Below, one piece after another: positions 26,179 to 30,920 of a stretch of DNA of 40,958 bases. Within the stretch, counting starts at the first letter, position 1; each line of letters starts with the position of its first letter. The DNA lies in the NCBI RefSeq assembly GCF_902143385.2, contig NZ_CABFUZ020000093.1, forward strand, positions 1-40,958, written 5' to 3'. The DNA is from Methylacidimicrobium cyclopophantes (lineage in GTDB: Bacteria > Verrucomicrobiota > Verrucomicrobiia > Methylacidiphilales > Methylacidiphilaceae). The notes under the pieces are model-generated. The model saw nothing but the letters and a program-made list of their open reading frames with translations. It searched no databases and had not been told where the DNA came from. The position numbers were made by a program, and so were the translations under genes.

Positions 26179-27009
26179 ATGACCTTTTCCTGCGACGACG
26201 CGACGCTTTACTTCACCACGGTCGGAATGGGTCCCGCCATGGTACTGCTCCATCCGACTCCGGTCGATCATCGCTTCTGGCTGCCGGTAGCCAACCTCCT
26301 GGCTTCGGAGCACCAGGTCGTTCTTCCCGACCTGCGTGGCCATGGACGGTCGACGACTGGCACCGGACCGATCACGGTAGAAAAGCTGGCGGCCGACGTG
26401 GCCCGGCTTCTCGACCATCTCGGAATCGCCAAGGCCTTTTTCGGCGGCTGCTCGATCGGCGGTTACACCCTCTTCGAAATCTGGCGCACGATGCCCGAGC
26501 GGGTTTCCGGCTTGGCTTTCTGCTGCTCTCGGCCGCAGGCCGACACCGAAGCCGTCCTCGCCCGGCGCCGAGCGAACATCGCAAAGATCCGAGAGGGGAA
26601 GGTCAGGGAGTTCCTCGAAGAGCAGCTCCGCACCCTGATCGGAGCCACCGCCCGCGCGCGCCGGCCGCAAATCGTGGCCGAGCTTCGCGAGATGATGGAG
26701 GCGGCTTCGCCCGAAGCCCTCATCGCCGTGCAGCAAGGCCTTGCAACAAGACCCGACTCACGGGCGACCGCCCGCACGATTCGGGTCCCCTGCTGCGTGG
26801 TTGCCGGCGGGGAAGATTCCTCGAGCCCACCGGCCGATATGCGTCTTTTGGTCGGAGAGATCCGAAGTGGCGGGAGCGAGGCGGAGTATATCGAGATCCC
26901 CGACGCGGGCCACTATGCCCCCTTCGAGCAGCCGGAGCGGATCGCCGAAATCCTCCAACGCTGCTGCAAAGCCGCGGACGAAGGTCGGAAGTCGACGAGG
27001 AACGACTAG
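26179..27009 (+). CDS. Alpha/beta-fold hydrolase
   Basis: The 276-residue protein has the alpha/beta hydrolase core: oxyanion-region LLHPTPVDHRFW, DLRGHGRST, the nucleophile elbow GCSIGG with the catalytic Ser, the acid in VAGGEDSSSPP and the His in DAGHYAPFEQPE. The lid segment (about 115-190) is Arg/Glu-rich. It resembles 3-oxoadipate enol-lactonase-like hydrolases in layout, but the substrate cannot be inferred. Cys replaces the usual His in the G-H-S-x-G elbow, which is a common variation. It stands alone, divergent from gnd, and converges on the next gene. Confidence 0.85.
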   Translation: MTFSCDDATLYFTTVGMGPAMVLLHPTPVDHRFWLPVANLLASEHQVVLPDLRGHGRSTTGTGPITVEKLAADVARLLDHLGIAKAFFGGCSIGGYTLFEIWRTMPERVSGLAFCCSRPQADTEAVLARRRANIAKIREGKVREFLEEQLRTLIGATARARRPQIVAELREMMEAASPEALIAVQQGLATRPDSRATARTIRVPCCVVAGGEDSSSPPADMRLLVGEIRSGGSEAEYIEIPDAGHYAPFEQPERIAEILQRCCKAADEGRKSTRND

Positions 27010-27040
27010 CCCGCAAGCTCGGAAAGAACCTCTCTTTCCT

Positions 27041-28915
27041 CTATCTCCCGCCGCGATCGATTCCGCGGTTGCGATCGATCGCCGAATGCTTTTGCCCAGA
27101 GAAAGGAGCCTGCGGCTTTTCGACCGAAACTTCCCATGGGTGCGGGATCTCCGGTATGCGGCAAACGAGCTTCTCGGTCTTTCCTCGGTAGGCCCGATAG
27201 TATGCTTCTTGCTCTCGGCAGCTGGATTCTTCTTCCAAACGCACCGGCAAGCGGGAAACGAGTGCGGCGATTCGCTGCTTTCGTTCGGGATCCCGCTCCA
27301 CAAGCAGAAGACTCCTCAAAGCGGAAGGCTCCGAGGGGAACTCCCGCAGCCGAGCGGAAGCTTTTCCGAGGACCGACTCGGCCGCCCGTCGCAGCACCCC
27401 GAGGGGCTGCTGCCGCAAATCGAGCTTTGTCTCCGCTTGCCGTTTCCGGAGCTCGGCCAGAAAGCGCTCCTGACCTGGCGTGAGGCCGGTTCGAGGCCGC
27501 CCGCGGAGCTCCGCCCCCGCCGCTTCCGGGCTCAAAACCAGGCCTTGCGAGGTGAGCGATTTCTTCGAAGATCCCAGCTGCGCAAAAAGCGATTGGAGGC
27601 CCTCCCGAGTCATCGACACCGGAGGGAGCATCGCCTGATCTCCGGGGCGCTTTTCCGAGGCTGGAGCCTTCGCCTTCTCTCCCGGCTCCTTCGCAGGAGC
27701 CTTCCGCGCTCGCTCCTCCTTCCACTGCTCGATCCGGACTCCCATTTCGTAGATTCGGTCTTCCAAGTCCTCCTTCTCTTGGCCGCAGCGGTAGAGGGAG
27801 ACCTCCGAAAAGCCTCGCCGCTTGAGCTCTTCGGGCAGAGAGGTCTCCCGCTTTTGCAGATCGTAAGGCGAAATCGACCGACCCGAAGGACCGAGGTGAA
27901 AGAGCCCGTTCCAGCTCAGAATCCCAAAGCAGGGGGTCTCCTTTTGGGTCGAGGCGGCAATGCGGGCAATCTCTCCCGCCATGCTGCGGTCTCGAGCATC
28001 CAGGAACTGAGAAGTCGACTGGACTTTGGATGCCAGATGTGGATAGGAGGCTCCCGTTGAATGGATCTCCCTCCAGTAGGTGCTGTTGTCAACCGGTTCT
28101 GTCTTTACCTGGTAGCCTCGTTCTGGATGGGCCGCCCGCGCTGCGGCAATCTGGTCAAGACCGTTGAAGGGAATGCCCTCGGCATTCTTCCCTCCCCGGC
28201 AGAGGAGAGAGACTTGAGCAAAAAAGGCGCTTCGCTCTGCGGAGTTTTGCCCAAAAGAGGGATTTCCCTCCTGTAAGCGGGACAGAAGCCCCTCTCCAAG
28301 CTCCTTCTCCTCCCGCCCCGAGGGCCTCTTCCCTTCCCGTGCCAGCGCTTCGGCCCGGGAAACGTAGCGATCAATCTCTCTTTGACAGCTTTGGGGAAGA
28401 CCTTCTACCCCGTAAAAGCGGTCGCCGTTCTTCCACGCTTCCACTTGCTTTTGGATCGGGACATCGATGCAATGCGGCCGAATCGGCTCCTCGGGATTGC
28501 CCGCATTAATCCAGGCAACCTCCATCAGAATCGATCCCCATTCAAAACCATCTCTCGGATCGACTTGATATCGTTTGATTGCTTGCTCCCAGGTTTTGAC
28601 CCACGACTCGATTACGCTCCTAGCAATGTTCTCATCGCGTCGATGCCCATCTTCATTGCTCTTCCGATCGGGCGCATAGAGAGCCTGCGCCTCCACAAGG
28701 AAATGGTCGACCAGCGGCTGGAAATCCCTCGAAAGCTCCAAAGCTACATCCCGAAAGCCCTGCTCCCGGGCCGTTGCAAGAGAACGCTCCAGATTGCCAA
28801 AATCATGACATCCTGTAAGCGGCATCCCATCGGCAGAGGCATGGATCTCCCCGCCGACGAGGATGGCGACATGGTCGGGATCAGGGGGTCGGGTTGGTTG
28901 AGGATCGCTTGGCAT
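27041..28915 (-). CDS. 624-residue protein with TraB/ChaN/EreA-superfamily-like signatures and a charged C-terminal extension
   Basis: I do not recognise a named family. The N-terminal 350 residues show an ordered set of motifs seen in the EreA/ChaN/TraB/TIKI superfamily: VAILVGGEIH (16-25), DVALELSRDFQPLVDHFL (56-73, close to the ChaN pattern ALEM--RD-QP-LD-FL), DARDRSMAGEIAR (306-318) and GILSWNGLFHLG (331-342). These are the usual places of the GExH, ALE, RD--MA and G--H active-site residues. Residues 400-450 are a Lys/Glu/Ala/Pro-rich linker. Residues 450-624 are helical and highly charged, with no known domain. There is no signal peptide. Its start overlaps the end of the upstream secreted-protein gene by 35 bases, so the two are translationally coupled. 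Confidence 0.55.
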   Translation of the reverse strand: MPSDPQPTRPPDPDHVAILVGGEIHASADGMPLTGCHDFGNLERSLATAREQGFRDVALELSRDFQPLVDHFLVEAQALYAPDRKSNEDGHRRDENIARSVIESWVKTWEQAIKRYQVDPRDGFEWGSILMEVAWINAGNPEEPIRPHCIDVPIQKQVEAWKNGDRFYGVEGLPQSCQREIDRYVSRAEALAREGKRPSGREEKELGEGLLSRLQEGNPSFGQNSAERSAFFAQVSLLCRGGKNAEGIPFNGLDQIAAARAAHPERGYQVKTEPVDNSTYWREIHSTGASYPHLASKVQSTSQFLDARDRSMAGEIARIAASTQKETPCFGILSWNGLFHLGPSGRSISPYDLQKRETSLPEELKRRGFSEVSLYRCGQEKEDLEDRIYEMGVRIEQWKEERARKAPAKEPGEKAKAPASEKRPGDQAMLPPVSMTREGLQSLFAQLGSSKKSLTSQGLVLSPEAAGAELRGRPRTGLTPGQERFLAELRKRQAETKLDLRQQPLGVLRRAAESVLGKASARLREFPSEPSALRSLLLVERDPERKQRIAALVSRLPVRLEEESSCREQEAYYRAYRGKTEKLVCRIPEIPHPWEVSVEKPQAPFSGQKHSAIDRNRGIDRGGR

Positions 28916-29771
28916 TGAGTCGCTGCGCCGCTTCCCGAATCGCCCGCATCAGCCCATTTTCCGGCCGAGGGCCGTGCGGCTTAGGCCTCGGATAGTAGAC
29001 GCATACCTCCAAAGGCACCTCTTCGCTGGATGCGGTGTTAAACTGAAATTCAACATCTCCCGATTCGATGTCGGATCTGAATTCCGCAGGACGATACCAA
29101 ACGTCAGAATAGGGCACATCGCGCCCTTCCGGATCGAGGTGGGAGCGGATGTCGGAGGATCTGGGCTTTCCCCAAGCCCGCACCAGCTCCGCTTCCTTTA
29201 AGGAAACCCTCCCCTTCCGGAAGGCGAGCTTTACGTGGCGAAAGACGCGCGGCCAGAACCGGTCACCTACCCGCACTGCGATCTGGATCGCCAGCACCGC
29301 TCCCTTCTTTTCCGGATGGGGATCGTCCCGCACGGCTCGGAAGATGAGCCAGTTCTTGAGCCAGTTCTCCTCAGGGTGCCAAGCCAGCCAAACCCTTATC
29401 TCCTCCTCATGTAACGGTGGATAGAAGTAATCGGGTCCCCACCGAAGCACAAAGTTATCGCGGCGCTTGCTAGGTCCCAGGAAGTCGCGGAATTCGAGGT
29501 GAAGGGCGTCGGGAAGGCCGTCGAGCTGCTCCGGCGGCCAAGCGATGAGCCCTTTGACCAGCGCAAAGAGCTCTTGGTTGGAAAGGGTGTGCTTCCGGAC
29601 GAGTACGGCTAAATCGATTTTTCCGGAAGGCGGCTCCCCCGAGGGAGTCTCCGCCCGGGAGGGAGAATTCCCCAAGAAGCCAAGAGCCGCTGGAAGGAGA
29701 AAAAGCCATCGGGCGGCTTTGGCTCCGATGCGAAGGTGAGATATCGGAAAATGCTCCCACTGCACCTCCAA
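28881..29771 (-). CDS. Secreted protein of unknown function
   Basis: The 296-residue product has a membrane-targeting N-terminus: basic AKAARWLF, hydrophobic core LLPAALGFLGNS, probable cleavage at SRA-ET. The mature part starts with a Pro/Ser-rich stretch. It continues with a mixed alpha/beta domain rich in Trp and aromatic residues (WGPDYFYPPLHEEEIRVWLA, RFWPRVFRHVKLAFRKG) and ends with a beta-rich part (VEFQFNTASSEEVPLEVCVY). I know no family for it. No ATG is available; the start is TTG 29771 or GTG 29765. The 3' end overlaps the start of the 624-residue gene, implying a shared operon and perhaps a shared process across the membrane. Confidence 0.6.
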   Translation of the reverse strand: MEVQWEHFPISHLRIGAKAARWLFLLPAALGFLGNSPSRAETPSGEPPSGKIDLAVLVRKHTLSNQELFALVKGLIAWPPEQLDGLPDALHLEFRDFLGPSKRRDNFVLRWGPDYFYPPLHEEEIRVWLAWHPEENWLKNWLIFRAVRDDPHPEKKGAVLAIQIAVRVGDRFWPRVFRHVKLAFRKGRVSLKEAELVRAWGKPRSSDIRSHLDPEGRDVPYSDVWYRPAEFRSDIESGDVEFQFNTASSEEVPLEVCVYYPRPKPHGPRPENGLMRAIREAAQRLNAKRSSTNPTP

Positions 29772-29949
29772 GACTTACTACCAAGAACGATAGCCTATGG
29801 CAAGGGCCCCTCTTGCTTTGCCCTGGATGAGAAAGAGGGCTGCAGAAAAGGCGAAGATTCGCGGATCGGGAAGAGACCCAAGATCACGAGAGAAAGCGCC
29901 AGCCGGACCGATCAGTCAAATGCCGCGCGGAGATTTCGACAGATCTTAC

Positions 29950-30920
29950 CGGCATCTCTCGTCGACTGGAAACCTTCGGACAGCATCGAAAAGCGATCCG
30001 CCGGCAGGCTGAGAAAGATCGAGACCCGCAGCCCGGGCAGTTTCGAGGCCGATCGCCGTCTAGTCCACAGCCGCTTCTCCTCAAGCAGCCAACCCCGGGA
30101 AACAACGGTCGCGCAACGGTCCGCTGAAAGGCATCGGTACCCTGAGACCTTCCACCGCCTCTATGAGAAGGCGAATCCTTTTTCCCTGGAGGAGCACGAG
30201 CTCCAGCGGGACCTATGGAGCGATCGACGGGTAAGCGGCCATAGGTATTGTACGGCGGCGCGCAACAAAGGGTGCTTGTGGGCAGCTCCAAATAGGCGCG
30301 ATGATCGATCCCGCCCTTCTCGACCGGCACCAGGGCTTCTCCCAGGGATTCGATGATGGCGGCAAAGAGAAAATTCCCTCTGCGCTTTACCAAGTCGGCC
30401 TGCTCCGGCCGCTCCCCAATGGGAAAGATCGGCCCTCCGATCGGTTCGAGCAGGGGGCGCATCCTCTCCAGGTGCGTAACCTTGCCCCCGACTACCAGGA
30501 TGAGCCTGCCGACCGCCGCTGCGCCGGGACGGCCGAAGAGCGCAATTGCAAGATGGTCCTGCCCGCGCTCCGCATGGAGCCGGGAGGGCTCGGCCGACAG
30601 GGCCACGCGAATCGTGCCGCAGCCGATGTACGTAGCTCCTTCAGGGAGGATCGCGAGCAGCCCATGATCTCCCAAACCTACCGCGCGCATCGCGGCATCA
30701 TCCGAGAGCATGCTGAAAACCACTTCTCGACCCGCGAGCTCCTTGAGATCGCCGGCGACCGCCGCTCCCCTCCGGAGAAAAGGCACCGCCGGGGCGGATC
30801 TCTGATTGAAAAGTTTCAGGTCGATTCCGGCGTCGAGGATGCGGGAGACTATTCCCGCACCCATCTGTCCCAAACCCACAAAGCCGACCTTACTCCTCGC
30901 GGGCTCGAACGGTCCTGCTG
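29950..30920 (-). pseudogene. HIBADH-family NAD(P)-dependent dehydrogenase, frameshifted
   Basis: The N-terminal part reads well on the minus strand from about 30900: VGFVGLGQMGAGIVSRILD (Rossmann motif), VVFSMLSDDAAMRAV, then the substrate region IGCGTI (normally DMST), LILVVGGK and the helix EQADLVKRRGNFLFAAIIES (normally with the catalytic Lys in the GxxxxxK-xNN context). After YNTYG near 30240 the frame is lost. The continuing sequence appears in another frame as IRLLIEAVEGL, DRCATVVSRGW and RSASKLPG, matching the C-terminal domain of 3-hydroxyisobutyrate dehydrogenase-like enzymes. There are at least two indels, and no clean start codon is present at the N-terminus. It is most likely a dead gene. 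Confidence 0.7.

What the first reader, a model, noticed from the sequence alone, without database searches (positions are those of the whole stretch)
27041..29771. Overlapping gene pair: secreted unknown protein plus a 624-residue EreA/ChaN/TraB-like protein with a novel charged extension
The larger protein shows four spaced motifs (GGEIH at 22-25, ALE at 58-60, RDRSMA at 308-313, NGLFH near 336-340) in the order used by the TraB/ChaN/EreA/TIKI superfamily. It is nearly twice the usual length and has a 200-residue Lys/Glu-rich tail that matches nothing I know. Its partner is a secreted Trp-rich protein, also unknown, and the genes overlap by 35 bases. Overlap and coupling suggest a two-protein system acting on both sides of the membrane.
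Basis: partly seen in the sequence, partly recalled or inferred. Interest (0 to 1): 0.65.

Follow-up and report, generated by a model that had tools for sequence, protein, structure and literature searches.

The report
Predicted secreted-effector and immunity gene pair
Two overlapping bacterial genes encode an enzyme with the fold of erythromycin esterases and some injected toxins, plus a secreted partner; relatives lie beside a type IV secretion machine, so the pair is probably a weapon-and-antidote (or related cargo) of that machine.

Summary
The pair is real: A (27041-28915, -, 624 aa) and B (28881-29771, -, 296 aa, signal peptide) overlap by 35 bases. A's residues 14-386 have the TIKI/EreA/ChaN fold (EreC Z 12.3, ChaN 12.2, RRSP 11.4, HopBA1 11.2; next unrelated 6.8). 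In its homologues E23, H25, E60, R308, M312 and H340 are invariant, matching the 2His/2Glu site shown essential in RRSP. Homologues were found only in one family (Methylacidiphilaceae): 9 of 13 genomes, 13 copies, 12 with a secreted partner gene adjoining. The pair behaves as a mobile cassette: two relatives have the empty site. Its tail is not unique: it is homologous to the C-terminus of a ~200-aa protein encoded in the family's type IV secretion (T4SS) locus, and in Methylacidiphilum a pair lies 2-210 bp from T4SS-associated genes. Best explanation: A is a T4SS-exported TIKI-fold hydrolase and B its periplasmic immunity protein, laid out like Xanthomonas X-Tfi/X-Tfe pairs. Fold and T4SS linkage are shown; export, toxicity and immunity are inferred.

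The parts
28881..29771 (-). Gene B: 296-aa protein with an N-terminal signal peptide (hydrophobic core, then ...SRA-ET), no lipobox seen; predicted periplasmic partner / immunity protein
   Evidence: ORF; hydrophobic N-terminus in all copies, mean KD 2.0-3.3 against at most 1.5 for A; homologues next to A in G002, G004, G005
27041..28915 (-). Gene A: 624-aa protein without signal peptide or TM segment; TIKI/EreA/ChaN-fold enzyme plus C-terminal tail
   Evidence: ORF; AF2 model; Foldseek/VIA; homologues
27758..28915 (-). A residues 1-386: TIKI/EreA/ChaN catalytic domain (E23, H25, E60, R308, M312, H340)
   Evidence: VIA-align range 14-386; invariant residues
27041..27487 (-). A residues 477-624: C-terminal module (QP[IL]GVLR.AA ... 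DR.R..DRGGR end), shared with the T4SS-locus ~200-aa protein; low predicted order
   Evidence: pLDDT mostly under 60
28881..28915 (-). 35-base overlap of B (3' end) and A (5' end); consistent with coupled translation
   Evidence: overlap also in G002 (4), G004 (22), G005 (56 bases)
26964..30016 (.). Largest possible extent of the inserted cassette: the flanking genes are adjacent (54-55 bp between aligned ends) in G006:C4 and G002:C225, with nothing between

Best explanation
B-A is a mobile effector-immunity cassette of a type IV secretion system. B is made first, exported by Sec and kept in the periplasm. A is made in the cytoplasm without a signal peptide; its C-terminal tail (in the genus of the window) is the recruiting/export signal for the chromosomal T4SS; its N-terminal TIKI/EreA/ChaN-fold domain is a hydrolase (ester or peptide bond; His/Glu water activation) that acts on something in the envelope of a rival or recipient cell, and B neutralises it in the producer. 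Shown by computation: gene order, fold, invariant active site, signal peptides, tail homology, mobility, genomic linkage to T4SS genes. Inferred: export, catalysis, substrate, toxicity, immunity.
For: Fold: EreC, ChaN, BcR135, RRSP/DUF5 and HopBA1 at Z 10-12.3, then a gap to 6.8. The catalytic 2His/2Glu of RRSP (E3900, H3902, E3930, H4030; PMC6254334) are matched by motif by E23, H25, E60, H340, invariant in the homologues. Partner: 12 of 13 copies of A adjoin a gene for a secreted protein; in G012 two copies have an unrelated secreted partner instead, i.e. partner swapping. Tail: hits in other proteins that end at the same place (E 1.2e-5, 2e-4); 26.8, 23.0 and 12.3 bits against a best of 10.7 in about 3000 shuffles each; these proteins are encoded in the T4SS locus. 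The T4SS is real: VirB10/TrbI, TraG/VirB4 P-loop and TraD/VirD4 domains above Pfam cut-offs. Linkage: in G007, G009, G010, G011 and G012 an A copy lies 2-210 bp from the VirB6-like gene that in the window's genus is inside the T4SS locus, or from secreted 'AWYR' genes that in G001 are inside the T4SS locus. All 9 A-bearing genomes have the T4SS; both genomes without it lack A. Cassette behaviour: empty sites, tandem B copies and an A remnant in G004, broken copies, orphan tails. Known precedent has the same layout: signal-peptide immunity gene upstream of the effector, effectors dispersed in the genome, small ORFs holding little but the export domain (PMC6536674).
Against: No experiment. Methylacidiphilum A's lack the 150-aa tail (about 410 aa, different ends), so if the tail is the export signal those must use another. 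Only one effector family was found to carry the tail, unlike the many X-Tfes with XVIPCD. G010 has A with no recognisable partner, odd for a toxin. The B's of the two genera are barely alike (hhalign probability 8%), and in G007 two A copies are 97.4% identical while their B's are 71.7%, so a tight one-to-one fit of B to A is not obvious. B has no lipobox. T4SS/A co-occurrence alone is weak (P about 0.08, not corrected for phylogeny). In the window itself no VirB6-like or AWYR gene is near the pair.
Confidence: 0.5

Rival explanations
1. A and B are T4SS accessory or entry-exclusion/recipient-control factors rather than a toxin and antidote: A trims or modifies T4SS or envelope components, B is a periplasmic regulator, and the pair travels with the T4SS membrane-protein gene and the AWYR secreted proteins.
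For: In Methylacidiphilum the pair lies beside the T4SS-locus polytopic membrane protein and its tandem fragments alternating with secreted AWYR proteins; some conjugative plasmids have eex next to virB6 (own knowledge); the tail is shared with a conserved T4SS-locus protein, not with other effectors.
Against: A-B pairs also lie away from T4SS genes as lone cassettes (window, G002, G004, the G007 tandem pair, two G012 copies); genomes with the T4SS but no A exist (G001, G003).
Confidence: 0.22
2. A is a T4SS effector aimed at eukaryotic predators or hosts (such as amoebae), like RRSP or HopBA1, and B is a secretion or folding helper.
For: Closest folds include effectors acting in eukaryotic cells (PMC6254334).
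Against: A secreted partner gene with every copy but one, and its duplication, point to self-protection; acidic geothermal methanotrophs have no known host (own knowledge).
Confidence: 0.1
3. A is a housekeeping or scavenging enzyme of the TIKI superfamily (ChaN-like haem handling, EreA-like esterase) with a periplasmic companion.
For: EreC and ChaN are the two best structural matches.
Against: Patchy presence (9 of 13 genomes of the family, no match in 282 genomes of the phylum sample), cassette insertion, tandem copies, broken copies and T4SS linkage.
Confidence: 0.12
4. A-B is an intracellular phage-defence or toxin-antitoxin module.
For: In G002 the pair is next to a cas4-cas1 fusion gene, and in G004 close to a CRISPR array and cas4-cas1.
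Against: B is exported; no useful PADLOC match; no CRISPR was seen beside the pair in the other genomes; no such genes in the phage or plasmid collections.
Confidence: 0.06

Closest known systems
EreC / EreA-type erythromycin esterases and BcR135 (PDB 6xcs, 6xcq, 3b55)
   Same: Same fold over A 14-386, Z 11-12; GExH, E and G..H residues
   Different: 11-15% identity; no such tail, no secreted partner gene; substrate of A unknown
ChaN (PF04187, PDB 2g5g)
   Same: Z 12.2; two of nine A-family sequences touch PF04187, best E 0.038
   Different: Below Pfam's threshold; ChaN is shorter; haem ligation not tested
RRSP/DUF5 of MARTX toxins and HopBA1 (PDB 5w6l, 6a7h, 5t09)
   Same: TIKI fold used in a translocated effector, Z 10-11.4; same 2His/2Glu set as RRSP
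   Different: Those act in eukaryotic cells; RRSP has a membrane-targeting lobe; A has a secreted partner gene and a T4SS-linked tail
Xanthomonadales X-Tfi/X-Tfe pairs of bacteria-killing T4SSs
   Same: Signal-peptide immunity gene upstream of a cytoplasmic effector with a C-terminal export domain; pairs dispersed in the genome; small proteins with little but the export domain (PMC6536674, PMC10933484)
   Different: No XVIPCD found; B lacks a lipobox; the T4SS is a divergent Verrucomicrobiota one; toxicity untested

Membership tests
TIKI/TraB/EreA/ChaN superfamily | Core parallel beta-sheet fold shared by EreC, ChaN, RRSP, HopBA1 | tested here: met
   AF2 model, core pLDDT about 90; Z 10-12.3 to five members, gap to 6.8
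TIKI/TraB/EreA/ChaN superfamily | 2His/2Glu active-site residues (GExH, second E, late G..H) and R..M | tested here: met
   E23, H25, E60, H340, R308, M312 invariant in homologues; RRSP residues from PMC6254334
ChaN Pfam family PF04187 (or PF05139, PF01963) | Match above the family's curated score | tested here: not met
   No Pfam match for the window protein at E<=10; best PF04187 E 0.038 in two relatives
TIKI superfamily enzyme | Hydrolytic activity | not testable with these tools
   Needs purified protein
Type IV secretion system in the host genomes | VirB4, VirB10 and VirD4/TraD-type components | tested here: met
   PF19044 81 bits, PF03743 72 bits (G010), PF12696/PF02534 above cut-off (G000 and others)
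X-Tfe effectors | C-terminal XVIPCD domain | tested here: inconclusive
   Pfam and NCBIfam scans list no family for A at E<=10; no dedicated XVIPCD profile was run
X-Tfi/X-Tfe type pairs | Immunity gene upstream, co-directional, with signal peptide when the effector acts in the periplasm | tested here: met
   B precedes A on the same strand in 10 of 13 copies; signal peptides
X-Tfi/X-Tfe type pairs | Lipobox in the periplasmic immunity protein | tested here: not met
   B ends its signal at ...SRAET / ...LRAEE; no lipobox Cys in the N-termini read
T4SS effector | T4SS-dependent secretion, binding to the coupling protein, toxicity neutralised by partner | not testable with these tools
   Bench assays needed

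The most novel reading that the evidence does not exclude
The first TIKI/EreA-fold antibacterial effector: a T4SS-delivered envelope hydrolase with a periplasmic immunity protein in acidophilic Verrucomicrobiota methanotrophs, using an export tail unrelated to XVIPCD, within a T4SS that also carries shuffled cassettes of a VirB6-like membrane protein and secreted exclusion- or immunity-like proteins.
Probability: 0.4. Interest if true: 0.75.

Novelty: new variant of a known kind. Interest (0 to 1): 0.6.

Why it matters
Bacteria-killing T4SSs are described mainly in Xanthomonadales and some Betaproteobacteria, with effectors recognised by one domain (XVIPCD); the authors of the review expect others with unrecognised components (PMC6536674). 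This would be such a system in another phylum, and would extend the TIKI fold, known from Wnt proteases, macrolide esterases and eukaryote-directed toxins, to warfare between bacteria. The small invariant active site makes a clean one-residue test possible.

Tried and rejected
Pfam, NCBIfam and PADLOC scans of A and B: nothing useful. PDB sequence profile search with A: only chance hits. Structure of B: no credible match; best DUF4309 YjgB Z 7.9, at the level typical of unrelated models; the Tsi3 immunity protein at Z 4.4 is noise. DRGGR-stop pattern as a genome-wide search for other effectors: apart from the A genes the hits looked like chance, so the end motif alone was dropped as evidence. 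The idea that the 316-aa neighbour of the 200-aa T4SS protein carries the same tail: profile comparison not convincing (probability 2.6%). A presumed orphan B in G012 turned out to be part of a third complete B-A pair. CRISPR link: only two of nine genomes, judged coincidental. MOB relaxase PF03432: none in 13 genomes; other relaxase families were not searched, so 'no conjugation' is not claimed. VirB6-like protein against PDB sequences: no match, so its name rests on topology and position only.

Full report
OBSERVATION. The two ORFs are at the stated coordinates on the minus strand and overlap by 35 bases. Neither matches Pfam or NCBIfam even at E 10.

WHO HAS IT. The window is contig 93 of a 2.28 Mb genome. 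In 60 relatives and a 288-genome sample of the phylum, homologues of A occur only in its own family: G000, G002, G004, G005 (same genus) and G007, G009, G010, G011, G012 (a second genus). A contig of G009 is a record titled Methylacidiphilum sp. Yel, so the family is Methylacidiphilaceae; that the window's genus is Methylacidimicrobium is my inference. I count 13 copies of A: one each in G000, G002, G004, G005 (frameshifted in the assembly, or broken), G009, G010 and G011, and three each in G007 and G012 (one of G012's broken).

FOLD AND ACTIVE SITE. AlphaFold2 gives a confident core for residues 40-405 and a mostly low-confidence tail. Foldseek's best PDB match is EreC (E 2.2e-4), then ChaN. 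VIA-align gives EreC 12.3, ChaN 12.2, BcR135 11.7, the DUF5/RRSP toxins 11.4-10.0 and HopBA1 11.2, then a drop to 6.8 for unrelated chains. Among nine complete homologues only 18 positions are invariant; they include G22, E23, H25, E60, R308, M312, G337 and H340. RRSP, a TIKI-family endopeptidase, depends on E3900, H3902, E3930 and H4030 (PMC6254334); by motif these are E23, H25, E60 and H340. Membership of the TIKI/EreA/ChaN superfamily is therefore well supported, although no Pfam threshold is reached (best PF04187 E 0.038 in two relatives).

PARTNER. Every copy of A but one (G010) adjoins a co-directional gene for a protein with a Sec-type N-terminus. In the window's genus the genes overlap by 4 to 56 bases. 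G004 has three B copies in tandem, one fused to an N-terminal remnant of A of about 80 residues. The B's of the two genera are hardly alike but share position, signal peptide and an L..L[IV].K start. Two copies in G012 have an unrelated secreted partner (432-435 aa) on the other side, overlapping by 4 bases. In G007 two neighbouring pairs have A's 97.4% and B's 71.7% identical. So a conserved enzyme is combined with fast-changing exported partners.

MOBILITY. The hydrolase and NAD-binding-domain genes that flank the pair in the window are adjacent, with 54-55 bp between the aligned ends, in G006 and G002; G002 carries its own pair elsewhere, beside cas4-cas1. Pairs sit at different places in different genomes, with tandem copies, broken copies and tail-only remnants (G004:C1:1324023, G001:C2:505123).

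THE TAIL AND THE T4SS. A profile of the last ~150 residues of the long A's found, outside A, proteins of about 200 aa in G003 (E 1.2e-5), G002 (2e-4) and, weakly, the window's own genome (0.21), always ending at the same profile position. Profile-profile comparison gives E 3e-5, probability 73%, over 124 columns. The three score 26.8, 23.0 and 12.3 bits against a maximum of 10.7 for about 3000 shuffles of each; in the reverse direction only one of four tails beats all its shuffles. So the homology is good but not overwhelming. In the window's own genome this gene lies in a T4SS locus (contig 109), with a TraD/VirD4-like coupling protein (PF12696, PF02534), a GspE-type ATPase, a six-TM VirB6-like protein (no Pfam match; named from topology and position) and a VirB5-like secreted protein. 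The same locus in G010 has VirB10/TrbI (PF03743, 72 bits, cut-off 35), a TraG/VirB4 P-loop ATPase (PF19044, 81 bits, cut-off 26) and VirB2-like pilins below cut-off. Orthologues of the 200-aa protein keep their place in G007 and G010.

GENOMIC LINKAGE. In the second genus a pair is found at T4SS-associated genes in all five genomes: A lies about 50 bp from a secreted 'AWYR' gene in G009, G011 and G007, 2 bp from one in G012, and 210 bp from the VirB6-like gene in G010; VirB6-like genes or fragments alternate with AWYR genes there. In G001 four AWYR genes are inside the T4SS locus, and two lie downstream of A in G005. In G010 no VirB6-like gene was found in about 50 kb around the main T4SS locus, so the A locus may supply it. 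A coupling-protein gene is present in 11 of 13 genomes; the two without it (G006, G008) lack A, and all nine with A have it. That count alone is weak (P 0.08); the adjacency is the stronger evidence.

MECHANISM. The layout equals that of Xanthomonadales T4SS toxins: immunity gene usually upstream, signal peptide where the effector acts on the periplasm, effectors dispersed in the genome with a ~120-residue C-terminal domain that binds VirD4, and small ORFs with little but that domain (PMC6536674; PMC10933484). I therefore judge A to be a T4SS-exported TIKI-fold hydrolase and B its periplasmic antidote (0.5). Firm: genes, fold, active-site conservation, secreted partner, mobility, T4SS linkage. 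Likely: A is a T4SS substrate. Uncertain: antibacterial action and B as immunity. Main doubts: the second genus lacks the long tail; G010 lacks a partner; B has no lipobox; B diverges between nearly identical A copies; an accessory or exclusion role is open.

NOVELTY. Searches of the paper library found no antibacterial or T4SS effector with a TIKI fold beyond the eukaryote-directed ones and no account of this T4SS; absence from a partial library is not proof. I rate it a new variant of a known kind.

Noticed in passing
L030:1-6981 and L087:7215-10971 (G007, G012): Tandem units, each a 3' fragment of the T4SS VirB6-like membrane-protein gene with a secreted protein ending in W.AWYR; looks like a recombination store of VirB6 C-termini with matching exclusion- or immunity-like proteins.
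   Followed up: partly
L069:16308-17891 (G000 contig 109): Two conserved T4SS-locus proteins of unknown family (202 and 316 aa), syntenic in both genera next to the GspE-type ATPase; the 202-aa one shares the A tail, the 316-aa one is Gly/Ala-rich and ends RSRERGLGR.
   Followed up: partly
L069:12329-14658: In the window genome's T4SS locus a 345-aa protein with a Pro/Ser-rich N-terminus overlaps a gene for a secreted protein made of two copies of one domain; another candidate effector/partner pair.
   Followed up: no
window 29884-30879 (-): NAD-binding (6PGDH-like, PF03446) gene beside the cassette; its C-terminal half looks frameshifted relative to the intact 297-aa copy in G002 (L082:2353-3246).
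   Followed up: partly
L026:8376-10532 and L024:12542-15523 (G002, G004): cas4-cas1 fusion genes, and in G004 a CRISPR array, close to the pair in two genomes only.
   Followed up: partly
L028:8231-9529 and L027:4165-5472 (G012): 432-435-aa secreted protein of unknown family that replaces B as the overlapping partner of a variant A.
   Followed up: partly
L088:13251-14879 (G010): ParB-like gene inside the T4SS region, suggesting that the T4SS came in on an integrative element or plasmid; no PF03432 relaxase in any of 13 genomes.
   Followed up: partly
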